Shown here: positions 7,260 through 20,166 of the stretch, in pieces | Layout of the letters: each line of letters starts with the position of its first letter | Position numbering within the stretch: position 1 is the stretch's first letter | Position numbers and translations under genes: made by a program | From: a virus | Strand: one strand, 5' to 3' | DNA length: 20,166 nucleotides | Virus record (IMG/VR): IMGVR_UViG_3300023184_000628 | Location: 1-20,166 of that record | The notes under the pieces: generated by a model | What the model was told of the DNA's origin: nothing | Databases searched by the model: none | Seen by the model: the letters and a program-made list of their open reading frames with translations, nothing else

Positions 7260-8351
7260 CTATGCCGTTAGATCGATCTTGATTCCGATATGTATTGAAG
7301 GATCAAAGTAAGCTACGGCTGAACGAGTTGCTTTAATCTTCATGTCGTTTGCGTTGCCAGATACGTTGTATCCCTGAGCTAGATTGTCATTTACTACTTC
7401 TGACTTGCCTAAGTGCGCGAACACCTTGCCAGTAGCGTAGATCCATTTTGTATTGTCATCACCTAGCATCTGAGCGTTAGCCACTCCTGTGGGGGCTGTT
7501 GCCGAGATATTACCGGTAGTCTTTGCAAAGGTAAATGTTGTAGAGTTAGTTACCGTTACGGTATACGTGCCAGAGAAGCTTGTAGCCCCAACCAATGCCA
7601 CGATCTGAACTGACTCCCCTGTTGCAAAATAGTGAGCAGTAGAAGTTACAACAGTAGCAACGTTACTTGATACAGCAATTGTTGCTATCGCAGCGTGAGG
7701 ACTATCTCCTGGGTAACCTGAGCCAATAATGACCTGGGCGCCAGATGCAGTTTGCATGTGTTGCGTATCTTTATTGTCCATAAATAATTGATTATTGCCA
7801 GTCAATAGCACAAAAGCATCGCGAGTAAGGTGAATAACACCGTGCTCTCCAGCAGGCGACATCTCTCCAGCGTACTGCTCTAGAAGAGCAAGGCCGCGGC
7901 GAGGGCTAAACTTTGCACCACTAGAAATGACTGTTACGCTAGATTTTGATAGAAAAATATTTGGAAGCCCCTGTGCTAGCGCAATTTCGCCATTCCATAA
8001 TTCAGATTCAAGTGCTTTTTGAGAAACACCCTCAAGTTGCTTAATAACACGCGCAAAACGATCTTCACCTAAGATGTCAAACGTAGAACGCTGATCTTCA
8101 ACTTCAATAAAAATTGGTCTAACTTCTTTGTAAAGAGCAGAGCTAGGATTGGAAGATACTACGAATGACGTACTAGAAGTTTCGTCCCAGGTGCGAACAT
8201 AGTTCGGCAAAGTATCGTACATTTGTGAAAAACCGCGAGTCCATTTGTCTTCGTCACTATGATCTGCAGGAAAAGCAGGTTTGGCTACAGCAAACAGGCC
8301 GAACTCTGTTGGTTCAATGCCTGGCGCTGGAAATATTCCATTAAAAGCCAT
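7260..8351 (-). CDS. Second HK97-type capsid protein, putative pentamer subunit
   Basis: 363 residues from an ATG at 8351 with a weak upstream AGGA/GAGA. Visible blocks are DQRSTFDILGEDRFARVIKQ, SELWNGEIA (near residue 118), GEHGVIHLTRDAF, GAQVIIGSGYPGDSP and KWIYATGKVFAHLG. This succession is the pattern I associate with actinophage capsid proteins annotated as pentamer subunits, with an HK97-like fold. Some large actinophages use separate hexamer and pentamer proteins, and the 682-residue protein just upstream would be the hexamer one. Residues about 222-294 are an inserted FCCH-like beta module (TSTAHYFATGESVQIVA, SGTYTVTVTNSTTFTFAK), probably exposed on the capsid surface. A minor capsid or decoration role is an alternative. 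Confidence 0.55.
   Translation of the reverse strand: MAFNGIFPAPGIEPTEFGLFAVAKPAFPADHSDEDKWTRGFSQMYDTLPNYVRTWDETSSTSFVVSSNPSSALYKEVRPIFIEVEDQRSTFDILGEDRFARVIKQLEGVSQKALESELWNGEIALAQGLPNIFLSKSSVTVISSGAKFSPRRGLALLEQYAGEMSPAGEHGVIHLTRDAFVLLTGNNQLFMDNKDTQHMQTASGAQVIIGSGYPGDSPHAAIATIAVSSNVATVVTSTAHYFATGESVQIVALVGATSFSGTYTVTVTNSTTFTFAKTTGNISATAPTGVANAQMLGDDNTKWIYATGKVFAHLGKSEVVNDNLAQGYNVSGNANDMKIKATRSAVAYFDPSIHIGIKIDLTA
7470..7691 (-). repeat. FCCH-like beta module, copy in the second capsid gene
   Basis: This encodes residues about 222-294 of the second capsid protein. Its pattern is V-x-T-x-T-S-T-A-H-x-F-x-x-G-E-x-V, then SGTYTVTV, then TTFTFAK. The module lies between GYPGDSP and KWIYATG, which belong together in relatives, so it reads as an insertion. 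Equivalent copies lie at about 6287-6518 in the tail gene and 4870-5090 in the adaptor gene. Confidence 0.7.
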
Positions 8352-8398
8352 ATTAGTCTCTGTTTCCTAACTTAAGATTTTGGACGTACTTACCGTTT

Positions 8399-8426
8399 CG
8401 GGGGTACCTGTTTCCAGGCACCCCCG
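8399..8426 (-). terminator. GC-rich hairpin after the major capsid gene
   Basis: CGGGGGTACCTG (8399-8410) and CAGGCACCCCCG (8415-8426) form a 12-bp stem with one mismatch and a 4-base loop. It sits 28 bases past the capsid stop codon. On the transcribed strand no T run follows, so complete termination is unlikely. A partial terminator or a barrier that protects the abundant capsid mRNA from 3' decay fits better. Confidence 0.6.
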
Positions 8427-8454
8427 TCACGATATTTATTTCTGTTGTCTTAGC

Positions 8455-10503
8455 TTAGTATTCAATCGCTGCAGCAGAAGCTCCACCAGTAGTATCACGG
8501 AGGGCAGCAGCCACACCGTTAACGCTAATGGTAGAAGTAATCTTAAGCGATTCAACTCCAGCGAATGCAAGACCTTCGAAGGTTTCAACGAACATCTTGT
8601 AATCGTTGGTTCCAACGAGAGTCGAGTCACGGATGATACCAAGATCAAGAGTACCGCCATCAAGGAACAAGAATGAACCTTCAGCGAATAAGTACCAGAT
8701 AAATGTATCTGGGAACTCGTTCATTGCGCCAGCTGATTGAGCAGCGAATGCGGAAGTGCCTCCAGCGATATCAAGCGTGTACGTCACGTTAACATTACGT
8801 GAAGCAATGTACCCTTCGATCTCTGCATAGGCGCTCATTGATGAATCACCAGGCATTGCCAGAGTAAGGTCTGCTACCATTGCGTCTCTGATCCATGCTG
8901 GGATGATAGCGCGAAGTGGCGCATCAGCCTCAAGACGGTGACGCGCACGGTAAGCTGCAGAAGCGCGACCAAGTTGAACAAGGAAGTCGCGACCGAGACC
9001 AACAAGGGAAGTCGAAGTGACTGCCGTTGAAAGAGCACCCATACGAGTAAGAAGCTGACCTTCTGCTTCACGAGCATGTTGAATAAGGCCAAGCTCGTTG
9101 TGACGAGCGACCAATTCAGGATACGCGCGAGTAAGAAGGTTACCGAACTGGAGCTGCAAGGTGACGGCGTCAGTAGCAACGGTCGTCTCTGAAGCTGCAG
9201 TAACAGTAAGGCTTAGCTTAGATGCTGGAGACGGGGTCTCTGCTGAATCGTTTGCTGCTGTCCAGATTCCTACAGAAGCTGCATAGTCAGCCAGCACTGG
9301 AGGAGTGATGTAGCGAATACCACCACGATCTGCTTGAAAACGAGGAAGTGCATCACGAACGGGACGGGCAGTAGTGCCAATTCCGAAGATGTCGTACTTA
9401 ACCTCGAAAGGTGTTTGATGTCCACCAGAAGCAACAAGTGCTTCAGGTCCGACAACTGCTTGGATCTTTGACCAGTTAGACTCTGCATCTTGTGTAAGAG
9501 TGCGTGCCTCTGGGAATTTGGTGGTAAGAGAAGCAACAATATGTTGTTCTCCGTCTCCACCATTTACACGACGAAGAGTATGAAGGCGCTTTGCCATTGC
9601 CTCTGCTACTCCACTCATGTCTGAAATTGCACTGCCTGCAGTTGTTCCAGGAATATCAGCGCCTGCCGTGATTGCCACGGTGGCCGCTGTACTCATGGAA
9701 GTTGGGCGGCGGTCTGCTGGAGCTTCAAAAGTCTCCGGCTCATTAACGGCGGCGGTCACTGGTGCCTCCTGATCTTCCTGCGCTGCTTGCGCGTTGGTGT
9801 TTTCTTGAGTTTGTGCTTCTTCTGCGGATGCTGCAATTGCCTCATCAGCAACAGCAACGACTTCTTCTACAACAACTTCTGCTTCAACTGCCGAAACGAC
9901 AGCCTCAACAGCTTCTGGTGCAGCTACTTCTTGTGGTTCTTCGATTGAAAGTTCTGACGCTGTTTTCGCAGCAGTTGACGCTTCAGCCATAAGTTTTGCC
10001 TCTTCTTCTTTCTTTTTCTCTTCTTCCTCATCAAAAGGAGTTTCAGTAACTTCTTCGATAGGGTTTTCTTGAGATTCATCCACTGGGGTTTTTTCTACAG
10101 GAGCTTCAGTTGCATCTGCTGGAGAAACTTCTTCTTCAACAGGAACATCAACTGCGGGAGCTACTGCCATTGCCTCTTCAGGCTTTTCTTCGCCAGGGGC
10201 TGCTTCTTCAGGAGCGGCTTCACCTTCTGGTGTATCTTTTTTCATAGCGTCTTCACCTTTAACACGCATAGCAGCTTCTGCTGCACGAGTAGTAAGCTCT
10301 TGTGTAGCGGCCTGACGGCGCGTTACTTCACCGCGAACGGTGTCAAGCATATCGGCTAAAGACGTCATGGCGTCTACTGTTTGCGGAGTAGGATCTTCCT
10401 TTTCAACCGTCTCAAACTGGCTAATGATCTCACTCTGAAGCTCAGCGACTTGATCGTCACTTAGCTCAGTCAGTGTATCTAGCATTCCTGTAATACGGTC
10501 CAC
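8455..10503 (-). CDS. Major capsid protein with fused acidic scaffold-like N-terminus
   Basis: 682 residues. GTG start at 10503 preceded by GAGGAGGG seven bases away, the best ribosome site in the window. Residues 1-80 are helical; about 85-262 are Glu/Ala/Pro-rich low complexity, strongly acidic, with a Lys/Glu run near 155-170. From about 303 the actinophage HK97-type capsid pattern begins: AKRLHTLRRV, FPEARTLTQDAESNWSKIQAVV, EALVASGGHQTPFEV, RPVRDALPRFQADRGGIRYI, SVGIWTAAND. Then come the helices and strands through ITSTISVNGVAA near the C-terminus. The mature domain is about 380 residues, the family's usual size. In HK97-type phages lacking a scaffold gene, such an N-terminal region acts as internal scaffold and is removed by the maturation protease. 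No separate scaffold gene is present here, so the fusion fits. Confidence 0.88.
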   Translation of the reverse strand: MDRITGMLDTLTELSDDQVAELQSEIISQFETVEKEDPTPQTVDAMTSLADMLDTVRGEVTRRQAATQELTTRAAEAAMRVKGEDAMKKDTPEGEAAPEEAAPGEEKPEEAMAVAPAVDVPVEEEVSPADATEAPVEKTPVDESQENPIEEVTETPFDEEEEKKKEEEAKLMAEASTAAKTASELSIEEPQEVAAPEAVEAVVSAVEAEVVVEEVVAVADEAIAASAEEAQTQENTNAQAAQEDQEAPVTAAVNEPETFEAPADRRPTSMSTAATVAITAGADIPGTTAGSAISDMSGVAEAMAKRLHTLRRVNGGDGEQHIVASLTTKFPEARTLTQDAESNWSKIQAVVGPEALVASGGHQTPFEVKYDIFGIGTTARPVRDALPRFQADRGGIRYITPPVLADYAASVGIWTAANDSAETPSPASKLSLTVTAASETTVATDAVTLQLQFGNLLTRAYPELVARHNELGLIQHAREAEGQLLTRMGALSTAVTSTSLVGLGRDFLVQLGRASAAYRARHRLEADAPLRAIIPAWIRDAMVADLTLAMPGDSSMSAYAEIEGYIASRNVNVTYTLDIAGGTSAFAAQSAGAMNEFPDTFIWYLFAEGSFLFLDGGTLDLGIIRDSTLVGTNDYKMFVETFEGLAFAGVESLKITSTISVNGVAAALRDTTGGASAAAIEY

Positions 10504-10543
10504 TGCTGTCCCTCCTCTGGGCCAGTCATGATGAACAAGATTA

Positions 10544-10630
10544 TTAGTTCATCTCGCTAATCAGTCCAAGGCCGAGGGACTCATCACGCAGGGTTGCGTA
10601 GAGGCACTCCACCTGAATTGAATAATACAT
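10544..10630 (-). CDS. Possible 28-residue small protein upstream of the capsid gene
   Basis: The 135-base gap before the capsid gene contains an ATG at 10630-10628 and a 28-codon frame ending with TAA at 10546-10544 (MYYSIQVECLYATLRDESLG... to MN). No good Shine-Dalgarno precedes it. The second half is visibly richer in G/C than its surroundings and contains AGTCC/GGACT, a short stem. The region could instead be a structured leader that sets capsid expression. No tandem terminator or clear promoter is visible in the gap. Confidence 0.35.
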   Translation of the reverse strand: MYYSIQVECLYATLRDESLGLGLISEMN

Positions 10631-10638
10631 TACTTTTA

Positions 10639-13600
10639 TTAAGTTAATAGTCGAAGAAGTTTACTTAACTGAGAAGAAATCTCTTGTTGAGTAAAATAGT
10701 CTCCGCCTCTCATGAAAGACTTTAGATCAACTGTTGCCTGATCTGCGTCTTTCTTGCCTATCTTGTCTTCTACACGTGTAATCATATCGTCTAGAAGATT
10801 TTTTAACGCTGGAGGAAGATCGCTATAGCGCATCTTCTCGTTTTCATTACCAAAAGAAAATGGAAGATTAGCAACAACCTTTCCAAGTTCCCTAGCAGAA
10901 GACCGAATATTCTCTATAGAATCAGGATTTAATGCATTAGCGTCTAGTCGATCAATGATTGAAATAAGTTTAGCTCCAGACGCGGCAGCTTCAACGTAGT
11001 TACCCGCGTTGTTGAGCTTCTCTGTTTTTGCTATCTGATCCATTACATCTTGAGAACCAGAAGTACCAAGATCTTGCTTAATACGCGCTAAAACTTCACG
11101 AAACTTGCCTTTTTCATCGCGCGGTTGAGTCTTAGGGGTGTATATTCCCTTATCTTGTGCCTCAACCGCTAATGCTTTTCCCAGATCATCACCGATTTCT
11201 AATGAAATAGAAGCTACACGTGAACGAAGATCTTTAATATCTTCATCTATAATTTCAGTTGATAGCGTTTTCCATTCCTCTGGAACAACATCAGATACCC
11301 CGTGCTTACGTGCCATTTTAATAATATGACGACGAACTGCAGCACGCTTGCCAGGCTTAGCTCTCCCATACGCTTGGATTGCGTCTTTAACGCCTTCAGC
11401 ACTAGTAATAGGGAATGAACCATCTGGTAGAGCTTTACCTTCTCTAGCAAGTTTTTCTCGACGTGGACGTGACAGAGATGCAAACGCATCGTCGTAGCGT
11501 GGCTCGCCGTGGATTCGCTCGTACAGCGCATCAGCTTGAATTGAAAGTTCAATAGCTTTATTCTCAATAACTTCACTAAATCTAGCGCGTGCAGCGTCAG
11601 CTTTAGCTGATAATTGAGCGTTTTCTAACTGCTCAAGTTTTTCTATACGAGCAGCCAATTCTGTAACTGGATCTGACTTCATCCGCGCAAGAACGTTAGC
11701 GCCAGCTGCAACAAGTGCCATAACAGCACCAGACGCAACACGGGCACGAGCAATCGGAAATCCTGGAACGTTTACTTGACAGACTGCTACAAGTTCAAGA
11801 TTACCCTTAATTGGGCGCCAGTCACCAGAAGGTGCAGACGCGCGAAGAGCACGGATTTGCTCTGGACTAGTCCCTGGACGAAGAGCGCCAGAAACCCAGA
11901 TACCGTAGGAGTCTTCCCCAGCGTGTACATCAGCTATTGCGGATGCTGTATCATCGTAGTGACGAACTGCTTCGGACGCGCTAGCTTCAAGTGAAGCATG
12001 CCCACCTGCGAGAGTGAGCTGACCGACTGGGACATCGGTTCCAGCGTCTGTACGAACAACTCCCGTGTGGAAGAACGCGTACTTGCTCTTGCTACGCGGA
12101 GGCTTAGTGCCATACGACATTCCAATATGATCAACGTGCCAAGCAGCAATGTGCCCATACACGCGACCAGAATCATCAACTGTTAAAGGTGTAGCTTTCT
12201 TTAGTTCTGGGTTACTGAACCAGTCACTCGGTGGAACGACAGGAATAGATCCAGCAACCAGGCCACACGCAACGAGTGCAGAAGCCTCTACTGGATCCAT
12301 TTCGTCGACGTACGTTCCGTCTGGAATCACAGTGTCCTCCTTATTCTCGTCATTGACGAGGTAGATTTGGCACTCTTGAAAAGCAGGTTTTGGTACAAGA
12401 GTAACCGCCATAACTCGTGCGTGTGATATCACGAGCTTTTCATTTTCTATTTTACCAGAGTCTTGTTCTAGTTCATTGTCCTTTTTGTTATCTTCTTCAT
12501 TTGCTTCGAACTGATCAAGGTCTGCAGAGACTCCACGAATAAAACCTTCTCGTACAAGTCTTTCAGCTTCTTTACCATACGCTCCAGAATCAAAAACGCC
12601 TCTAGCGTTTCCAATTCCTTTTTCAGTGCGCTCCATTGAGTCTATTCTTCCAACAACAACTGAGCCATTGTGCCCTTCATCTGTTTTTATCTGCCACATA
12701 AGAGGCAAAGGAAGCTCACGAATTTCTATAGAACCCTTATCGAATTGTCTACCATCACCGGATTCAACACCTTCTGGTAGAACTAATGGAATAGAGAACT
12801 GGTATCCGGAGACTAAAGTGTCTTCTTCACCTGATGCTGTAAGAACTCTTCGCCTTGCACTTTGGGCCTTAGCAGAAAGAATAGAAGCATCTAAAGTCTC
12901 TCTATAAGACAGAATCCCATCAACTGCAAAAGCACTGTTATTCTTCATACCAGGATTACGACTGTCTCCTGGCCACATTCCAGTTGTTTCCTTATGTCGT
13001 AGTGAGCAGTAGCCCTTAGCGCGTGGACCCATGTATTTCTTAAGATGACGATAGCATCTTGTCCAGTCTCCTGGAGTATTCCAACGAATCTTAAGTCCGC
13101 CTTTACCTACTGTCCAGTATTTACGTAAAGTTTCAGCATTCCCGCGATTCTTGTCAGCTCCACCAGCAGCTGTCATTCCATGATCGCATTCCTGAGCCAT
13201 CAGTTCATCGTCTTCTAACAGTCTAACAATGTGCTCTTCTGGTTCCCACTCATGATCATACAAATCATCATAGGTAATATAAATAGCATCTATTGGCATA
13301 TCCATATCTTCTTTAGTAACCTCAGTAAATGGTTTCATTGTAAGAGGATCAAAAGGAGTCTCCATAATAAATTCTTCTACAGAGTTATTACGGGCTCTGT
13401 CACGCTTAGCATGAGTTGAAGTATAGAAACCTAGAGCGTCTTTGTGACGAAGCTGGCAGTAGCCTTTAGCTCTAGGTCCTAGATACTTAGCAAGATGGCG
13501 TACGCAACGAGACCAATCTCCCTTTGTCCCCCAACGAATCTTTGCAGCGCCTTTACCACGCGTCCAATAACGGCGTAAAGTTTCAGCATTCCCGCGATTC

Positions 13601-15762
13601 TTGTCAGCTCCACCAGCAGCTGTCATAACCATAACGTTTCCATTAGGTCCCCAGAGAAGCGTAAAGAACTCGCTATCTGCTTCAACAGATGCTGTAACTG
13701 GGACAATTCCATCGATTTGTTCAATTACTGATTTAAGAGTTGGTCCATCAAGAGGTATAACAGGAGGAGGAGTAGGGGAACCTAGATCACTAATAACTGT
13801 CTCATTACGAACCCAGCTTTTGTCTATTCTGCTATACGCCATAGGATCAGTAGATGTTGAACTTGCAGGCACGAGAGCAATAAGGTCAAGAACAGCGCCT
13901 GGGTCATCATTAGCTACTATCGCAAAAAATATTGGCTGAACATCGCTATTAGTAGGAGTCATTTCACGCGACTCTCCAGCTACATCAGGAACTTTATCTG
14001 CTATTTCTTCTGAAGCGTCTACAGCTGCTATTAAGCCGCTTGCACGAAGTAATGGTTGAAAGTAGACTTTGTTAGGGTAGTAGTACTGGCCATTAGAGCC
14101 TTTAACTTTCTTGTTTAAGAATTTCGACAAGAGAGGATCCTTATAAGGATCAGTTATTAGTTTAGTTCCAGTTAATTTCTCAAGTTCTTTAAGTGCGTCT
14201 GTTTTCTTAATTTCCGGCACTTGATCTTTGCCAGTAACAACTTTTAGTTTCCTGGCTTCAGGCATCTTGCCAACTTCAACCTTTTGCGGCACGGGGAGAC
14301 TTTCAGTAAAACCATCGCGCATACTTTTTACGTGACCAGGAAAATCATAGAGAACTTGTGCAAGATCTTCAGGACCAAGTCTTGGCAAAGTACCAGGTAT
14401 CTTAGCGTCAGGACGGTCAATAGGAGCGCGAGGCTCACCAAGAATACCTGAAACGTCTAAAGGAGTAACATTTTTTACGTCGTTAAGAGACGGAGTGTAC
14501 GCGTCAGCTGGCTCAACTGCAGAACCTGGGACGCTAACTTCTGTACCAGTATTAAGACGTACACGAATAGTACCATCAACAGGATTAGTTCCAACAATCT
14601 TTCCACTACCTCTTGAAGCATCTCCACCAACAACAACGCTAGAGCCAGACTTAGCGAATCTTCCAGTCTTGTCACGAACTTGAACTTGAGCATTCTTTGC
14701 GCGTTCTTCAGGCGTATAGTTGCCATCACCTGGAGCTGCTGGAGCAGGAGAAGGCGCAGCGCCAGCTGCTGTAACAATTCTGTCAATAAATTCCATGTCA
14801 ATACCAGCAGCAGCATTAAGCATCATCATAGCTTCGTCGTAATTTACATCAAACAATGATACGCGCGCATTGGGATCTTCTTGGAAACAAGCAGAAAGAA
14901 ATAACGCAGACTCTGTATCGATTTCAACGTGAGTCACATCTGCAGAACCAAAATTATTATCAAGTTCTGCATCGTAGCTAGCAAGATCGTTATATACTCC
15001 TGGAAGATTATTCCAGAAACCAGCATCCCAAACAGAAACTGTAAGGTTCTCGTCTATTTTATAAAGACGATCAATGCCAGAGCCATCCATGTGCATGCGC
15101 GCAATGAACTCTGAAGAAGTATCATTAGAAAAACTATCTACGTCTGCGTCATATTTATTAGTAGCGTACACAGAATTATCTTCTATGTATGAGTTATCAG
15201 CGTACCCGTCAGCTTTTATTGCTTTATTCTTTTCACGCTCTACTATTTGTTGCGCCCATTTCCATGCGGTGTCGCCACCCCAGAGAGCCCACGCAATACG
15301 CCCATTTGACGGAAAGTTGTCCTCACCTGGGCGGTAGCCTTTCGCCTTCTTATCGACTTCATGACGAGGAAAATACTTCGCAATATGCCTAACTTTTTCG
15401 ATACCAATTTGACCACCCTTAGCTAACCTGCGTGCAGTGTTGATTCCAACAGAAGTTCCACCACGGTTATGCTCATTGTGCCAAGCAAGACCGCGTTCAG
15501 CCTCACTCTGGGCACCTTTAGGTATAGTGTACATACGACCAGCAGAGGCAACAATGCTTACATCAAGAGTAGTCAACGCTGCGCGTGCTAGGTCAGTAAC
15601 AGTTTCATCAACAGTAACACTAGAAAAGTCCCACGCTGCGGAAGCTAGTAATGACGACAAGCTACCCTGAGAAATAGTGACGTTACTTTCAACGTCTACA
15701 ATGACCGCATCATTCTCATGAGAAAAAAGAATATGTGAACCATTCTTTCCAACTATTTCCAT
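10639..15762 (-). CDS. Giant capsid maturation protease polyprotein (1707 residues)
   Basis: The ATG at 15762 directly follows the previous stop (TAAATG). Domains in order: residues about 75-170, a small conserved module (RGGTSVGINTARRLAKGG, RHEVDKKAKGYRPGE, GRIAWALWGGDTAWKWA); about 382-417, a KOW/SH3-like patch; 713-800 and 863-940, two copies of a Trp/Cys module (KIRW, DW-x-RC-x-RHL, GPRAKGYC, LRHK). Then about 985-1150 is the prohead protease domain with likely catalytic His1031 (KTDEGHNGS) and Ser1079 (RGVSADLD). About 1175-1340 is the actinophage region PPSDWF, YGHIAAWHVDHIGMSYG, GEDSYGIWVSGALRPGTSPEQ, LELVAVCQVNVPGFP. About 1449-1497 is a helical module (GRAKPGKRAAVRRHIIKMARKHG), and the C-terminus is helical. 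Related proteases are usually several hundred residues, so this chain is unusually long. It should cleave capsid precursors inside the prohead, and probably itself. Confidence 0.85.
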   Translation of the reverse strand: MEIVGKNGSHILFSHENDAVIVDVESNVTISQGSLSSLLASAAWDFSSVTVDETVTDLARAALTTLDVSIVASAGRMYTIPKGAQSEAERGLAWHNEHNRGGTSVGINTARRLAKGGQIGIEKVRHIAKYFPRHEVDKKAKGYRPGEDNFPSNGRIAWALWGGDTAWKWAQQIVEREKNKAIKADGYADNSYIEDNSVYATNKYDADVDSFSNDTSSEFIARMHMDGSGIDRLYKIDENLTVSVWDAGFWNNLPGVYNDLASYDAELDNNFGSADVTHVEIDTESALFLSACFQEDPNARVSLFDVNYDEAMMMLNAAAGIDMEFIDRIVTAAGAAPSPAPAAPGDGNYTPEERAKNAQVQVRDKTGRFAKSGSSVVVGGDASRGSGKIVGTNPVDGTIRVRLNTGTEVSVPGSAVEPADAYTPSLNDVKNVTPLDVSGILGEPRAPIDRPDAKIPGTLPRLGPEDLAQVLYDFPGHVKSMRDGFTESLPVPQKVEVGKMPEARKLKVVTGKDQVPEIKKTDALKELEKLTGTKLITDPYKDPLLSKFLNKKVKGSNGQYYYPNKVYFQPLLRASGLIAAVDASEEIADKVPDVAGESREMTPTNSDVQPIFFAIVANDDPGAVLDLIALVPASSTSTDPMAYSRIDKSWVRNETVISDLGSPTPPPVIPLDGPTLKSVIEQIDGIVPVTASVEADSEFFTLLWGPNGNVMVMTAAGGADKNRGNAETLRRYWTRGKGAAKIRWGTKGDWSRCVRHLAKYLGPRAKGYCQLRHKDALGFYTSTHAKRDRARNNSVEEFIMETPFDPLTMKPFTEVTKEDMDMPIDAIYITYDDLYDHEWEPEEHIVRLLEDDELMAQECDHGMTAAGGADKNRGNAETLRKYWTVGKGGLKIRWNTPGDWTRCYRHLKKYMGPRAKGYCSLRHKETTGMWPGDSRNPGMKNNSAFAVDGILSYRETLDASILSAKAQSARRRVLTASGEEDTLVSGYQFSIPLVLPEGVESGDGRQFDKGSIEIRELPLPLMWQIKTDEGHNGSVVVGRIDSMERTEKGIGNARGVFDSGAYGKEAERLVREGFIRGVSADLDQFEANEEDNKKDNELEQDSGKIENEKLVISHARVMAVTLVPKPAFQECQIYLVNDENKEDTVIPDGTYVDEMDPVEASALVACGLVAGSIPVVPPSDWFSNPELKKATPLTVDDSGRVYGHIAAWHVDHIGMSYGTKPPRSKSKYAFFHTGVVRTDAGTDVPVGQLTLAGGHASLEASASEAVRHYDDTASAIADVHAGEDSYGIWVSGALRPGTSPEQIRALRASAPSGDWRPIKGNLELVAVCQVNVPGFPIARARVASGAVMALVAAGANVLARMKSDPVTELAARIEKLEQLENAQLSAKADAARARFSEVIENKAIELSIQADALYERIHGEPRYDDAFASLSRPRREKLAREGKALPDGSFPITSAEGVKDAIQAYGRAKPGKRAAVRRHIIKMARKHGVSDVVPEEWKTLSTEIIDEDIKDLRSRVASISLEIGDDLGKALAVEAQDKGIYTPKTQPRDEKGKFREVLARIKQDLGTSGSQDVMDQIAKTEKLNNAGNYVEAAASGAKLISIIDRLDANALNPDSIENIRSSARELGKVVANLPFSFGNENEKMRYSDLPPALKNLLDDMITRVEDKIGKKDADQATVDLKSFMRGGDYFTQQEISSQLSKLLRLLT
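12290..12815 (-). other. Prohead protease catalytic domain within the polyprotein
   Basis: Residues about 985-1158 of the 1707-residue chain. Order of motifs: QFSIPLVLPEG, RELPLPLMWQIKTDEGHNGS with the likely catalytic His1031, VVVGRIDSMERTEKG, GVFDSGAYGKEAERLVREGF, RGVSADLDQFEA with the likely nucleophile Ser1079, ISHARVMAVTLVPKPAFQECQI. This is the herpesvirus-assemblin-like fold of phage maturation proteases (HK97 gp4 type, MEROPS family U35/S78). Between the serine and the final strands is an Asp/Lys/Glu-rich insertion. Confidence 0.85.
12930..13630 (-). repeat. Duplicated Trp/Cys module with 53-bp identical ends
   Basis: Bases 13124-13176 and 13574-13626 are identical over 53 positions, 450 bases (150 codons) apart and in the same frame. 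They encode the start of each module copy (MTAAGGADKNRGNAETLR). The remainder of the two copies (residues 731-800 and 881-940) is similar in protein (KIRW, PGDW or KGDW, RC-x-RHL-x-KY, GPRAKGYC, LRHK) but clearly diverged in DNA. Identity limited to one end suggests local gene conversion or strong selection on that segment. Confidence 0.85.
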
Positions 15763-16374
15763 TTACTTATTCCCCGTCTTATCATTCGCTGGCGCTCCAG
15801 CGCTTTCTTGCGTTCCAAAAACTATAGGTCCAACGTACCCTTCTGATTCTTTACCATCAATGTAATCAACTAACCATCCATTTGGACCATTAGGATCAAC
15901 GCTGCCAAGCGCAGCAAAAATAAGTTCAGTCATTCCAGGAGCATCTACTTCTGCGTCAGGGTCACCATTTGAAAGCTGGTCTGCTAGATCAGGATAGTCA
16001 ATAAGTACTTGATACATATCATCGTACCGTGAAGCAACAACAGCACTCATAGCAGCGCCATTGCTTTCTTGCATAGATCTTTCCATTGCAAGCTTTTCAC
16101 TTTTTATTGCTATCTTTTTACTGCTTTCTTCTATTGACTTAGAAAACATAAAGTAACCTAAACCAAACGTAGCAATGCGTAGATAATCGTCAACAGTCAG
16201 ACTACTTTTATCTGAGGTAACACGCGAAAGAATCTCTTCTACTCTACGAGAAGAATCAAACATTGGCTTCTTGTCATCAAGGAAAACATAGCTAAAACCA
16301 GAATCATCTGCCATGACAGAAAACACATGCATATCGTTATTGCTAGTGTCGTAAGCTCTTATAACCTTTATCAT
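15763..16374 (-). CDS. Hypothetical 203-residue protein
   Basis: I do not recognise this protein. It starts at ATG 16374 with AAGGAG about ten bases upstream, 14 bases after the stop of the large preceding gene, and ends immediately before the start of the protease polyprotein, so it belongs to the same operon. Residues 1-50 look like beta strands (MIKVIRAYDT, MHVFSVMADD, FSYVFLDD). About 75-125 is helical with a Ser/Lys/Glu-rich coiled-coil-like segment, and about 140-175 is another helical region rich in Asp and Pro. The C-terminus is Gly/Pro/Ala-rich and looks disordered. No signal peptide is present; the short hydrophobic FGLGYFMF near residue 90 is too short for a membrane span. Its position suggests a head-assembly role. 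Confidence 0.75.
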   Translation of the reverse strand: MIKVIRAYDTSNNDMHVFSVMADDSGFSYVFLDDKKPMFDSSRRVEEILSRVTSDKSSLTVDDYLRIATFGLGYFMFSKSIEESSKKIAIKSEKLAMERSMQESNGAAMSAVVASRYDDMYQVLIDYPDLADQLSNGDPDAEVDAPGMTELIFAALGSVDPNGPNGWLVDYIDGKESEGYVGPIVFGTQESAGAPANDKTGNK

Positions 16375-16388
16375 TGCGTATTGTCTCC

Positions 16389-19300
16389 TTAGCGCCAGAA
16401 TCGATTATTTAACATTGAGAGAAACTCTTCATGGTAACTGCCATTTACTTTAAGCATTTCATCTAGACGATTGTTAATTACGTCTCTAAAAGCGTTAATA
16501 CTTCCCCATTTAGCGATAATTCTATCAAGCTCTGGTCCTGTAGGGAACTTCTCTTCTTTCATTAAACTTTCTCTTAGACTATCAGCTTCATTTCTAAACA
16601 TAGCTAGAAGCTCATCTTCTTTTAATCTACGAGTAAGCGCTGGCATTGTCATTGTATAAATGGTTTCTCCTTGACCTGTAAGAAGACGTGTTATGTGAAT
16701 AGTGTCTGCATTCATCGTATTTAACATAGCAATAGCGTGATCAATAGGAAGAATATGGACCTTACTTGGATCAGTACCATCTAGAGCTAAAAGAACGTTA
16801 CCATTATGGCGATCTGCATTTGATAGAAGAAGATCTAACAAAACCATTCTAATGGCTTCTTCAGGAGAACTAAGCTTATCAATAAGAGTATCACTATTTA
16901 CGCTAACTACGCTTCCGTCTGAAGCAACTAGATCATTTAGTTCCTCAAAAACTGAAGAAGCTAGCACTGGCTTCTCAATCAAAGGACCAACACTTCCTGC
17001 CATTTGCATAATTACAATGTCGCTATTATTACTATTTTGGCGAGTCTCGTACGCTCCAATCATGCCAAGACCATTAACTAAAACACCAGCGGATGCTTCT
17101 ATAGCAACTGCGTCTAATCCGTAATGACTTGCTCCCTCATCAAATTTTACGTAAAAAATCTGTCCAGAAGCATCATGCACTGCCTTGTACGTCATGTTCT
17201 GACCCGACTCCGCGTAGCTTAATGGCCTAATAGTAAAGCCACTAACAGCGTCATCTTGAATATCCTCAGGAGAAGCTTCTGACAAAACGTTTCCAACTCC
17301 GAAGTCATTAGAGCCAAGACTAGGATTATCAGCGCGGTACTCTTCTCTTAACACGTTTCGTAATTTAATAACATCTTCAAAAGGCATAACTCTACTACTA
17401 TCGAGTAACTGTTTAGCAGTATAGTTATTAAGAGCATTCTTAGCTGCTGGAGACAAAGCTGCTAGGGATCTATTATTTTGAAGTACGTCACGTATTTCTG
17501 CAAGATAAGGACGAAGAGCTTCATTGTTATCAAAGAAGTCGTTACTATTCATTTTCATAACAAGTTCTCTGCTTACATTTGCCTTATTTACTTTATTTTC
17601 TACTCTGTCACGAGCACGACGCATTTGATCATAGTTAGCGGCCTGCACTTGCTCTACAGCAGCCGGGTCTAAGCGCTTTACACCGTTCCAACTGTTGTCT
17701 GTCATGAACTTTTTACCTACCCATGACTTAGCGTCAGGGTACCAGCCAACAAGAGCAAATTCCATAGGAGTAGGAACCTTATTAGCATCTAGAGTACCAT
17801 CAGGTCTTTCAGCTTCTTTAATTCGCGAGATTAGATTATCAAGGTGCGCAAGAACTTGAGGATTTGATTCCATATTGCGCATACGACCTATTTTACGTAA
17901 TAAACTAGTACTAAATAGTTCAGATGAGTCCCAGTTAAATCCGTTAAGAGCCCAGACAAACGCTCCCTCAAAGTTACTCCCGCCAGCAGCCATAACGTGA
18001 ATCTCTTTCACGCCATTAGCGATATACCAGTCTTCCATGTACCTGTTGTACGAGAATGCAAAGCCAGACTTCTTGTTTGCTGTGTTCATTCTCATGTAAG
18101 AGTTCTTAACTTGCCACTCGAAAGAAGTAGTACCATCGAGGTTATACACTTTTTTCCCAACAATATTTCTTTCTACTGTTCCTGCCTTGACTCCGTTTTT
18201 ATCATTAATATCTATTGAAATTGAAATGAGTACCTTAGCAGTACCGTTTTCTATTTCTTCAGGAGTGCCATTAACATGAGTGCTAAGAGCAGTCTTCTTT
18301 AAAGTGTAGCCCTTTCCAAATGAAACACCATCACGTACGCCAAAAGCGTCTGCAATAAGCGTATCGACAAGCTCTTTAGTTTTTTTATTGTTATCAACAA
18401 GATCTTGTAATTGCTCTGGAGAAAGACTATCGTTTCTTCTACCATTTGCGTACTCTTCGTTAGCAGTGTACTGATCTAGAATTGCTTTCTTTACACTAGC
18501 AAGTGTAGCTCTGTCAGTTCCAGCTCGTGCAATTTCAGATGCTCTGGCGCCCCATGCTTGGAAATCTTTTTGCACAGCATCAGCATTTACGTAAGGGAGC
18601 ACGTCTTGTGGTGTATCTCCAAGACTAGCTACGCCAGGGACGTTTCCTTCACTAGCGACAGGCGCAGGATTGACAATAGGAGCATTCACTCTTTGAGCAA
18701 TATCTGGTATGAAGCGTGGAGTTGCTGCAGGGGCAGGCATGGCTGGCACAACAGGAGCAGCGTTATCAGTAACGCGTACTTTCACTGCTGATCTAACAGC
18801 TACTTTTCCATCGTCAAAACGAATTCTTACATATGGTATTCTTTGCCCAGTTCGACTATCAATGTTTTGCACGCTTATAACTGTCCCAAGCTTACCATCA
18901 GAATTAGCTCGTACACGAGTTCCGGCTCCCATAACTCTTCCGTCTAAAGAAAGAACAGTATTATTTGGTGAGTAGCCTGGTATTTCTGGTCCAGGGTACG
19001 TTAATGCAGGAGCCGCAGGAGCCGCAGGAGCCACGACAACGTTAGGCTCAGGTTTAAGTTCAGGAGTTGGTGCAGGTTCAATGGTAGGAACTTCAGGTAC
19101 AGCAGTGTCTACTGGTTTATCTGACTCTGAAAAGTCATTTGACTCTTTATTAAGCATATCAATAATATTGTTAGTGTTAACTCCTAGATACTGAAGAGCA
19201 TCGCGGACAGCCTCTACAGGGACTTCGTATGTATTGAGATCATTAAACGCTAGATACGCAGCACCAGAACCATCAGTAACACTTATAAGAACTTGTTCTA

Positions 19301-20166
19301 TAAGATCAGCTTCATTAAACATATGAGCAAGATACTCTGGATTATCAGTATAGCCATCAGCATCTAGTTTCAACTGAGAAGGTACATAGTGATTAGAATC
19401 AATAACATAGTAGTCTGGATTATTAAAATCAACTGGTATATTTTCAATTAAAGAACCAGGAAGCTTATCGTCCAAGTTGTACGCTTTGTTATCGCGCGAA
19501 ACAGATACTGAAGTATCTCCGATAGGAGTAGCATCAATTATTTGACGAATCTCCGCTGTAATATCATCAACAAGTTTAGCTTCCTCTGGTGAAGGAACTC
19601 CACCTTGTGCCTCAATAAGACGATCAAGGTTGTTGTTATTACCATTTACAGAGTCGTAAATGTTCGCAATAACACGATTAGGATCCATGCCAGCTTCCCA
19701 TATAGCGTTATACAACGCTCCAGCAGGTACATACTCTTCTCCAGCATTAAATTCTAAACGACCAGCGCCTGAAGGCGTACCAATACTTACTTGCGGTATA
19801 TCAACGTTGTTACCGAGATCTTCAGCAGAAGGAATATCTCCAGAGTCATCTACGTTAGCGTTTAGAATTTCACTAATAGCTGAGTCAGACGAATTACCAA
19901 TAAGAGCTTCACTAAACGCTGCTACTAGATCTTGAGGAGTAAACTTTGTTGCAAGACGCTTAGGGTCATCAGTGAAGTCAGTGCTTGTCTCGTCAACACG
20001 CCCGTCTGGTTCATATTCAGCAGTGCGGAGTTGAAACGCGGTTGTTGGCGCATCAAAGTTATTGAACAAGGCTGGCGCTTCTGGATTAGAAGGGCTAGGT
20101 GTCTTAGGTGGAGTTCCACCTGATGGAGGAGTTGGTGGCTCGCCTGGGGCGTCGCCGGTGACAGGA
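16389..20166 (-). CDS. Multidomain head-proximal protein with GNAT-like and PI3/4-kinase-like domains (5' end missing)
   Basis: The frame is open to the window edge. The TTG at 20069 has no ribosome site and is preceded in frame by a Pro-rich linker (PSGGTPPKTPSPSNPEAPA), so the real start is outside. Numbering from that TTG: about 15-150 and 225-315 are two diverged repeats; 316-372 is a Pro/Ala linker; 379-433 is a KOW/SH3-like patch; about 590-720 is GNAT-like (SGFAFSYNRYMEDWYIANGVKEIHVM, split here for length, then FVWALNGFNWD). About 945-1150 is kinase-like with Lys975 (YVKF), Glu991, hinge DIVIMQMAG, catalytic loop NADRHNGN (Asp1086, Asn1091) and metal-site Asp1110 in PIDHA. The DRH-x-x-N loop is the PI3/4-kinase and HipA signature. 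It lies where portal or MuF-type minor head genes usually sit. An injected effector or head protein is inferred. Confidence 0.75.
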   Translation of the reverse strand, partial: PVTGDAPGEPPTPPSGGTPPKTPSPSNPEAPALFNNFDAPTTAFQLRTAEYEPDGRVDETSTDFTDDPKRLATKFTPQDLVAAFSEALIGNSSDSAISEILNANVDDSGDIPSAEDLGNNVDIPQVSIGTPSGAGRLEFNAGEEYVPAGALYNAIWEAGMDPNRVIANIYDSVNGNNNNLDRLIEAQGGVPSPEEAKLVDDITAEIRQIIDATPIGDTSVSVSRDNKAYNLDDKLPGSLIENIPVDFNNPDYYVIDSNHYVPSQLKLDADGYTDNPEYLAHMFNEADLIEQVLISVTDGSGAAYLAFNDLNTYEVPVEAVRDALQYLGVNTNNIIDMLNKESNDFSESDKPVDTAVPEVPTIEPAPTPELKPEPNVVVAPAAPAAPALTYPGPEIPGYSPNNTVLSLDGRVMGAGTRVRANSDGKLGTVISVQNIDSRTGQRIPYVRIRFDDGKVAVRSAVKVRVTDNAAPVVPAMPAPAATPRFIPDIAQRVNAPIVNPAPVASEGNVPGVASLGDTPQDVLPYVNADAVQKDFQAWGARASEIARAGTDRATLASVKKAILDQYTANEEYANGRRNDSLSPEQLQDLVDNNKKTKELVDTLIADAFGVRDGVSFGKGYTLKKTALSTHVNGTPEEIENGTAKVLISISIDINDKNGVKAGTVERNIVGKKVYNLDGTTSFEWQVKNSYMRMNTANKKSGFAFSYNRYMEDWYIANGVKEIHVMAAGGSNFEGAFVWALNGFNWDSSELFSTSLLRKIGRMRNMESNPQVLAHLDNLISRIKEAERPDGTLDANKVPTPMEFALVGWYPDAKSWVGKKFMTDNSWNGVKRLDPAAVEQVQAANYDQMRRARDRVENKVNKANVSRELVMKMNSNDFFDNNEALRPYLAEIRDVLQNNRSLAALSPAAKNALNNYTAKQLLDSSRVMPFEDVIKLRNVLREEYRADNPSLGSNDFGVGNVLSEASPEDIQDDAVSGFTIRPLSYAESGQNMTYKAVHDASGQIFYVKFDEGASHYGLDAVAIEASAGVLVNGLGMIGAYETRQNSNNSDIVIMQMAGSVGPLIEKPVLASSVFEELNDLVASDGSVVSVNSDTLIDKLSSPEEAIRMVLLDLLLSNADRHNGNVLLALDGTDPSKVHILPIDHAIAMLNTMNADTIHITRLLTGQGETIYTMTMPALTRRLKEDELLAMFRNEADSLRESLMKEEKFPTGPELDRIIAKWGSINAFRDVINNRLDEMLKVNGSYHEEFLSMLNNRFWR
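16620..17235 (-). other. PI3/4-kinase/HipA-like phosphotransferase domain
   Basis: This is the C-terminal domain of the partial multidomain protein, roughly residues 945-1150. The order fits a kinase-like fold: a Gly/Tyr-containing first strand pair (SGQNMTYKAVHDASGQ), Lys975 on the third strand, Glu991 on the following helix, a hydrophobic hinge (DIVIMQMAG), helix MVLLDLLLSNADRHNGN carrying Asp1086 and Asn1091, then ILPIDHA with Asp1110. All residues expected for ATP and metal binding appear to be present, so activity is plausible. The substrate cannot be deduced. Confidence 0.65.
17880..18310 (-). other. GNAT-like acyltransferase region
   Basis: Roughly residues 590-730 of the partial multidomain protein. 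Beta strands (AKVLISISIDIND, GTVERNIVG, SFEWQVKNSYMRM) lead to KKSGFAFSYNRYMEDWY, resembling the acetyl-CoA-binding loop and helix of GNAT proteins, then VKEIHVMAAGG and FVWALNGFNW as the later strand and helix. The strict Q/R-x-x-G-x-G/A loop is degenerate here. The fold call is therefore tentative and activity uncertain. Confidence 0.45.

What the first reader, a model, noticed from the sequence alone, without database searches (positions are those of the whole stretch)
16389..20166. Kinase-like and GNAT-like domains in one head-module protein
The sequence shows an intact-looking PI3/4-kinase/HipA-like domain (Lys975, Glu991, DRHNGN loop, Asp1110) in the same chain as a GNAT-like region, KOW-like patch and Pro-rich linkers. 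The gene sits directly upstream of the maturation protease, where portal or MuF-type minor head genes are found. MuF proteins of temperate phages are known to carry variable enzymatic or toxin C-termini. I infer a virion-carried modifying enzyme, either injected to act on the host or acting on virion proteins. This is the best candidate here for an undescribed system.
Basis: partly seen in the sequence, partly recalled or inferred. Interest (0 to 1): 0.78.

Follow-up and report, generated by a model that had tools for sequence, protein, structure and literature searches.

The report
Kinase–acetyltransferase protein in phage head genes
An uncultured phage encodes, among its capsid genes, one very large protein that ends in an acetyltransferase-type domain and an intact-looking kinase domain, which may travel with the virus and chemically tag proteins of the infected bacterium.

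Summary
Window 16389-20166 (-) is the C-terminal 1258 residues of a 2021-residue protein, complete in L004. It ends with a GNAT-type domain and a kinase of the HipA/PI3-4K/CotH superfamily. The kinase fold was predicted and matched; Lys, Glu, DRH..N and Asp are invariant in 29 of 29 distinct full-length relatives; dN/dS is 0.02-0.15. The GNAT fold rests on weak structural matches and on homology to a domain fused to a minor-capsid protein in phage Jera and inside giant actinobacterial proteins. The gene lies between portal and protease/capsid genes. No portal or MuF domain was found in it. Unlike MuF toxins its C-terminus is fixed (39 of 39 complete ends); a central cassette zone varies. Gordonia phages and DSL-LC01 carry another kinase subtype at the same place. 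Best reading: a head-module, probably injected, protein-modifying effector; virion delivery, catalysis and targets are inferred. A HipA-like kinase between portal and capsid genes has a precedent (Gratiaviridae), so this is a new variant of a known kind.

The parts
16389..20166 (-). C-terminal 1258 aa of a 2021-aa head-module protein; the start codon is outside the window (L004:7712)
   Evidence: 13,775 nt compared with L004, 1 mismatch
20115..20147 (-). proline linker PGEPPTPPSGG, second of two near-identical copies in the gene (L004); the contig ends here
19161..20075 (-). conserved 'mid' domain (profile A3), 52-69% identical in the 19 aligned relatives; no Pfam match
18777..18935 (-). KOW/SH3-like patch, conserved in relatives, no Pfam match
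17658..18356 (-). GNAT-type acetyltransferase domain core (residues ~604-836)
   Evidence: AlphaFold model plus Foldseek/VIA; homology to Jera gp5; to actinobacterial proteins
16392..17333 (-). HipA/PI3-4K/CotH-superfamily kinase domain (residues ~945-1258)
17145..17147 (-). catalytic Lys1007
   Evidence: invariant 29 of 29
17097..17099 (-). Glu1023 of the Lys-Glu pair
   Evidence: invariant 29 of 29
16797..16820 (-). catalytic loop N-A-D-R-H-N-G-N (D1118, N1123)
   Evidence: D, R, H and the last N invariant 29 of 29
16740..16742 (-). metal-binding Asp1142
   Evidence: invariant 29 of 29
15763..16374 (-). 203-aa gene that follows the giant gene in relatives; no Pfam or PHROG match
10639..15762 (-). 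1707-aa protein with portal/head-maturation-protease profile matches (residues 948-1402)
   Evidence: PHROG phrog_859 E 2e-96, phrog_18402 E 5.9e-56
8455..10503 (-). major head protein (phrog_777)
   Evidence: E 4.4e-75

Best explanation
The gene encodes a polyvalent-type head-module effector. Shown: a large protein of the head-gene cluster with a conserved N-terminal part, a variable cassette zone, a conserved mid domain, then a fixed GNAT domain and a fixed kinase domain with intact catalytic residues, between portal and capsid genes. Inferred: the protein is packed in or on the head, is ejected with the DNA, and the kinase phosphorylates and the GNAT acetylates host proteins to favour infection, in the manner of the injected ADP-ribosyltransferase Alt of T4. 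The kinase is more likely a protein kinase than a lipid kinase, because its nearest bacterial folds (CotH, HipA, CtkA) are protein kinases (recalled). The substrate is unknown.
For: Kinase fold: top PDB match HipA 4pu4 (E 2.2e-4, prob 1.00); VIA Z 11.7 CotH, 11.0 PI4KIIa, 10.2 CtkA, 10.1 HipA. Catalytic residues invariant 29 of 29; dN/dS 0.02-0.15 in 6 pairs. GNAT: most Foldseek and VIA rows shown are acetyltransferases. The same GNAT subfamily is the C-terminus of a minor-capsid protein in phage Jera (Phage_min_cap2 E 4.5e-40; hhalign P 98, pairwise E 6e-14; profile E 6.9e-16), which ties it physically to a head protein. It also lies in very long actinobacterial ORFs, one with a papain-fold glutamine-deamidase toxin (E 2.5e-25), one with GT4-conflict, which suggests an effector. 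The order portal / ferritin-DUF5824 gene / giant / g203 / protease / capsid is kept in the viral-contig rows shown, as far as the contigs reach. Positional equivalents carry related machinery: GodonK gp67 and Sixama gp73 right after the portal; Sixama gp75, between gp73 and the protease, with ADP-ribosyltransferase (PF03496 E 1.7e-16). The giant of DSL-LC01 carries a GodonK-type kinase.
Against: No virion proteomics and no activity data. The C-terminus is invariant within the clade, which an assembly role would also give. Structural alignments of the kinase are remote (Foldseek TM-score by query length 0.25-0.40 in the rows shown; VIA rmsd ~4.4-5.8, 7-14% identity). GNAT matches are weak (best E 0.013, none at E <= 0.001; VIA Z at most 6.8, within the range of common arrangements), and the CoA loop has Lys for the usual Gln/Arg. 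The kinase itself found no relative in the phage collection or in bacterial/archaeal genomes by one pattern scan. GodonK-type kinases in Pseudomonas and Morganella phages do not sit beside annotated portal or capsid genes in the stretches read, although the Morganella gene lies six genes before the terminase. A late, non-packaged role (Benler et al.) also fits the position.
Confidence: 0.5

Rival explanations
1. Assembly enzyme: the kinase and GNAT modify the phage's own head proteins (or each other) during morphogenesis, as the spore-coat kinase CotH modifies coat proteins (recalled).
For: CotH is the best structural match by VIA, though within 1 Z of PI4KIIa; fixed C-terminus in 39 of 39 complete relatives; constant synteny with portal, protease and capsid genes in the rows shown.
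Against: The GNAT subfamily recurs in bacterial conflict-type giants and in a Jera protein in a genome without this kinase; the DSL-LC01 giant has a different kinase and no GNAT match, though its portal is 77% identical. A conserved assembly step would not be expected to swap enzymes.
Confidence: 0.2
2. Late-expressed, unpackaged host modifier that blocks superinfection, as proposed for the HipA-like kinase of Gratiaviridae.
For: Same gene position (between portal and MCP) and Dps-like genes in both groups (PMC8008677, passages).
Against: Here the kinase is fused into a 2021-aa protein with GNAT and linker cassettes; the related GNAT is fused to a capsid protein in Jera. No AAA ATPase or glycosyltransferase match among the four upstream L004 proteins scanned.
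Confidence: 0.15
3. Mainly a structural/scaffold giant whose kinase and GNAT folds are now binding modules without catalysis.
For: Lys instead of Gln/Arg in the GNAT CoA loop; long Pro-rich linkers.
Against: All seven kinase catalytic positions are invariant down to ~33% identity while most flanking positions drift.
Confidence: 0.1

Closest known systems
HipA-like kinase of Gratiaviridae (Benler et al. 2021, PMC8008677, passages read)
   Same: HipA-family kinase between portal and major capsid genes (five phages); Dps-like proteins in the same phage group
   Different: Bacteroidetes phages; reported with an upstream ATPase and glycosyltransferase; GNAT fusion and cassette giant not mentioned in the passages I read; sequences not compared here
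Polyvalent proteins (Iyer et al. 2017, PMC5512222, passages read)
   Same: Multidomain phage proteins with GNATs, kinases and ARTs, often encoded with virion genes and proposed to be injected
   Different: Their kinases are a Ser/Thr/Tyr clade said to lack the C-terminal subdomain; our model has a helical C-terminal half and resembles HipA/PI3-4K/CotH. They describe two GNAT families; whether ours belongs to either was not tested
GodonK gp67 / Sixama gp73 and gp75 (Gordonia phages)
   Same: Large proteins just after the portal with structural matches to our kinase (gp67, gp73); Sixama gp73 weakly matches the same PHROG (phrog_3162, E 0.0026); gp75 adds an ADP-ribosyltransferase
   Different: Another kinase subtype (GodonK has no DRH; N-W-D...DN...D), GodonK not matched by profile A1; no GNAT match in GodonK
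Microbacterium phage Jera gp5
   Same: Same GNAT subfamily at the C-terminus of a head protein
   Different: Fused to Phage_min_cap2; no kinase match in the genome
HSTV-2 gp16 and HHTV-1 gp13 (haloarchaeal tailed viruses); uncultured Caudovirales protein A0A6J5MJB0
   Same: Foldseek matches to our kinase model (A0A6J5MJB0, named PI3/4-kinase, is the best, E 6.4e-7); the two haloviral genes lie in the head module, HHTV-1 gp13 two genes before a MuF gene
   Different: No GNAT match in the two haloviruses; sequence similarity is weak and mostly around the catalytic loop; context of A0A6J5MJB0 not examined
MuF polymorphic toxins (Jamet et al. 2017, PMC5576092; search listing only, features recalled)
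   Same: Head-gene location, enzymatic C-terminus
   Different: No MuF domain detected; C-terminus fixed, not variable

Membership tests
PI3/PI4 kinase family (PF00454) | Lys, D-R-H-x-x-N loop and metal Asp | tested here: met
   K1007, DRHNGN 1118-1123, D1142; invariant 29 of 29
PI3/PI4 kinase family (PF00454) | score above Pfam gathering threshold | tested here: not met
   24.4 of 27.1 bits, E 3.3e-5
HipA toxin (HipBA) | HipA-like kinase fold | tested here: met
   Foldseek top hit 4pu4 E 2.2e-4, prob 1.00, TM 0.37; VIA Z ~10
HipA toxin (HipBA) | recognised HipA Pfam domains and an adjacent HipB antitoxin | tested here: not met
   no HipA model at E<=0.5 on the full protein; neighbours are a ferritin-DUF5824 protein and a 203-aa protein without Pfam or PHROG match at E<=1
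CotH kinase | CotH fold | tested here: inconclusive
   best VIA match Z 11.7, but within 1 Z of PI4KIIa 11.0; no CotH Pfam hit
GNAT superfamily | GNAT fold | tested here: met
   most Foldseek rows shown and nearly all of the 50 VIA rows name acetyltransferases (p300/CBP included; a few titles name no function), but weak: best E 0.013, Z at most 6.8; homologous to the Jera gp5 C-terminus, itself Acetyltransf_1 E 0.014, below its cut-off
GNAT superfamily | Q/R-x-x-G-x-G/A acetyl-CoA loop (motif recalled) | tested here: inconclusive
   window K-x-x-G-F-A; Q-G-R-G-F-A or Q-G-G-G-F-A in 3 of 4 bacterial relatives; Jera R-G-Q-G-F-S
MuF polymorphic toxin | MuF domain | tested here: not met
   no Pfam/PHROG MuF match in the full 2021-aa protein or (Pfam) its N-terminal 763 aa
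MuF polymorphic toxin | variable C-terminal toxin domain | tested here: not met
   39 of 39 complete C-termini are GNAT-kinase
Polyvalent protein | two or more effector-type domains in one chain encoded with virion genes | tested here: met
Polyvalent protein | packed in the virion and injected | not testable with these tools
   needs virion proteomics

The most novel reading that the evidence does not exclude
Head-module kinases of the HipA/PI3-4K/CotH superfamily are a general, unrecognised class of virion-delivered effectors of tailed viruses of bacteria and archaea. In this clade the kinase is welded to an acetyltransferase, giving two protein modifications from one injected chain, while a central array of small cassettes is reshuffled by recombination at repeated proline-linker DNA.
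Probability: 0.3. Interest if true: 0.72.

Novelty: new variant of a known kind. Interest (0 to 1): 0.52.

Why it matters
Phages are known to inject ADP-ribosyltransferases, but I know of no shown case of an injected kinase-acetyltransferase pair (recalled; my ten literature searches covered an open-access library only). The family was found on 53 IMG/VR contigs by one scan, its kinase active site is under strong purifying selection, and cultured phages with equivalents (GodonK, Sixama, Jera) make it testable. A domain shared between phage head genes and bacterial conflict-type giants also suggests exchange of effectors between the two.

Tried and rejected
MuF or portal domain in the missing 5' part: looked for, not found. 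Sequence match of the kinase profile A1 to solved structures: only chance-level hits (best E 0.16, none a HipA/PI3K/CotH kinase), so fold comparison was used. Kinase relatives in the phage collection: none by tblastn; in bacterial genomes: 134 pattern stretches, none confirmed. ADP-ribosyltransferase domains that I read by eye in DSL-LC01 and GodonK gp67 were not confirmed by Pfam or PHROGs, so they are not claimed; only Sixama gp75 is supported. The GodonK-type kinase segments of GodonK and DSL-LC01 have no Pfam or PHROG match when scanned alone; their kinase nature rests on the structural match and on sequence reading. A shared R[DG]xxG[RK][FWY] motif looked specific for proteins between portal and capsid genes in the parts of DSL-LC01, GodonK, HHTV-1 and L004 scanned, but I chose the motif after seeing those sequences, HSTV-2 and Jera have none, and in two phages fetched as a check its hits are not in that place (phiC31 2, Patience 1). 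It is not used as evidence.

Cassette exchange: the 12 pairs compared were hand-picked from the BLAST list. In 10 of 12 the cassette identity exceeds that of the mid, GNAT and kinase domains; in 2 it does not. Slower evolution of cassettes could also give this. In two relatives with long variable zones scanned with Pfam (L046, L006) that zone gave only sub-threshold matches.

Literature: 10 searches in an open-access library only. Passages were read from PMC5512222, PMC6293099, PMC8008677 and PMC10611076; other papers were seen as listings. No claim of absence from print is made.
Full report
What is there. The frame 16392-20165 on the minus strand is open to the end of the window. The window is a 20,166-base virus record. 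A longer contig, IMGVR_UViG_3300023179_000179 (L004), holds the same DNA: 13,775 bases compared, 1 mismatch. There the gene is complete: 7712-13777, 2021 aa from an ATG. The single mismatch falls in a proline-linker repeat, 18 bases into the window's coding end; the gene has two copies of this repeat (38 nt, 95% identical), so the missing 5' end is most simply an assembly break at that repeat (inference).

Gene context. In L004 the order is portal (phrog_776, E 1.4e-106), a 680-aa protein with a ferritin/Dps domain and DUF5824 (Pfam E 1.8e-14 and 8.7e-7), the giant, a 203-aa gene, the 1707-aa protein with portal/protease profile matches, and the major head protein. The viral-contig rows shown keep this order as far as each contig reaches; the middle of that output was cut, and in some loci (for example L033, L038) a further stretch matching the 680-aa protein lies near or before the protease gene. 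In several relatives the 680-aa gene is matched only from about residue 164-175 on, that is, without the ferritin part.

Kinase. An AlphaFold model of residues 909-1258 from 12 sequences has mean pLDDT 79.9 and pTM 0.85. Foldseek against the PDB gives HipA first (E 2.2e-4), then Vps34 and other kinases; TM-scores by query length are low, 0.25-0.40. VIA gives CotH Z 11.7 (rmsd 4.6, 254 aligned), PI4KIIa 11.0, CtkA 10.2, HipA 10.1. Full-length relatives: 32 ORFs with both ends, 29 distinct proteins. In 29 of 29 Lys1007, Glu1023, Asp1118, Arg1119, His1120, Asn1123 and Asp1142 are invariant, while most neighbouring positions vary. dN/dS of the kinase region is 0.02-0.15 in six pairs. The kinase is therefore intact in its known catalytic positions and under selection. 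Its substrate, protein or lipid, is not shown.

GNAT. The model of residues 501-905 (pLDDT 81.2) matches acetyltransferases, weakly: best Foldseek E 0.013 and none at E <= 0.001, VIA Z at most 6.8. Homology is stronger evidence. Phage Jera gp5, a Phage_min_cap2 minor capsid protein (annotated capsid maturation protease), ends in the same domain (tblastn 7e-8; hhalign P 98; profile E 6.9e-16). A pattern scan of 84,980 genomes gave four confirmed actinobacterial loci (26-29% identity), each in an open frame of 1500 codons or more. Of these four proteins scanned with Pfam, one has a papain-fold glutamine-deamidase toxin domain and one a GT4-conflict domain; two had no match at E <= 0.01. The shared signature is roughly NR[FYH]ME[DN]WY ... 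WA..G[FY].W ... P[TS]P ... W.GK ... W.G.K. In the window the CoA-binding loop has Lys where GNATs usually have Gln or Arg (recalled motif).

What varies. A scan with the mid domain alone found 53 loci. In 39 the ORF reaches its stop, and in 39 of 39 it ends GNAT then kinase; the other 14 are cut by the contig end, 4 of them with GNAT sequence, one of those also with part of the kinase. So the C-terminus is not polymorphic in this clade. The zone between the N-terminal part and the mid domain ranges from about none to 1347 aa. In 14 of 29 proteins EPPTPPSG-type linkers occur, one to five per protein. L074 has six related 40-nt copies (68-100% identical to the reference copy) and a perfect tandem duplication of at least 300 nt. 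In eight hand-picked pairs cassettes are 71-85% identical between proteins whose kinases are only 33-47% identical; some of these cassettes are only about 40 residues long. One small cassette looks like a helix-turn-helix by eye. Shuffling at linker DNA is an inference.

The same place in other phages. DSL-LC01, a predicted actinobacterial phage (PMC10611076, passages), has a 3289-aa protein at this place with related N-terminal and mid parts. Its genome has no match to kinase A1 or GNAT A2, but the giant carries a GodonK-type kinase stretch (31% identity, blastp 2e-24). GodonK gp67 lies directly after the portal, as does Sixama gp73; both are Foldseek matches of our kinase model (E 2.7e-3 and 6.6e-3, prob 1.00). 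Sixama gp75, before the protease, is an ADP-ribosyltransferase (PF03496 E 1.7e-16, Alt-like PHROG E 1.5e-5). The haloarchaeal viruses HSTV-2 (gp16, after the capsid gene) and HHTV-1 (gp13, two genes before the MuF gene) also match. The assignment of UniProt entries to these four genes is by protein length and organism. Against the pattern, GodonK-type kinases in Pseudomonas phage Dolphis and Morganella phage Mecenats66 are not next to annotated portal or capsid genes in the stretches read, though the latter lies six genes before the terminase.

Mechanism. The pattern (large multidomain protein, head-gene position, interchangeable protein-modifying enzymes, a domain shared with bacterial conflict proteins, a cousin physically fused to a minor capsid protein) fits best with a virion-delivered effector in the sense of polyvalent proteins and T4 Alt (PMC5512222, passages). 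Delivery, catalysis and targets are inferred. The main rivals are modification of the phage's own capsid and late superinfection exclusion as proposed for Gratiaviridae (PMC8008677, passages).

Verdict. The system is not without precedent, but the fixed GNAT-kinase pair in a cassette-bearing head-module giant is a distinct variant.

Noticed in passing
L004:5670-7712 (upstream of the window's gene): 680-aa protein with an N-terminal Dps/ferritin domain (E 1.8e-14) and a C-terminal DUF5824 region, between portal and the giant; in several relatives the ferritin part is not matched, and in some a further match lies near the protease gene.
   Followed up: partly
window 20115-20166: The contig ends at a proline-linker repeat that occurs twice in the gene; the only mismatch to L004 lies in this repeat, suggesting an assembly break.
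   Followed up: yes
L074:4609-5476: Perfect tandem duplication (at least 300 nt) of a cassette bounded by 40-nt linker repeats inside the giant gene.
   Followed up: partly
L133, L134, L135, L136: The phage GNAT subfamily occurs inside very long actinobacterial ORFs, in L134 with a glutamine-deamidase toxin domain and in L136 with a conflict-system glycosyltransferase; L136 appears by eye to hold two copies.
   Followed up: partly
window 10639-15762: The 1707-aa protein carries two similar copies of a ~68-residue block (GGADKNRGNAETLR.YWT...); phrog_6439 matches it in two stretches.
   Followed up: no
L003, L004, L052, L122, L123: A short R[DG]xxG[RK][FWY] motif is found only in proteins between portal and capsid genes in the parts of four phages scanned, but elsewhere in phiC31 and Patience; the motif was chosen after seeing the sequences.
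   Followed up: partly
L028, L054, L055, L060, L074, L080 (between mid and GNAT domains): A second linker type (RRFPPTT...) occurs in 6 of 29 distinct relatives.
   Followed up: no
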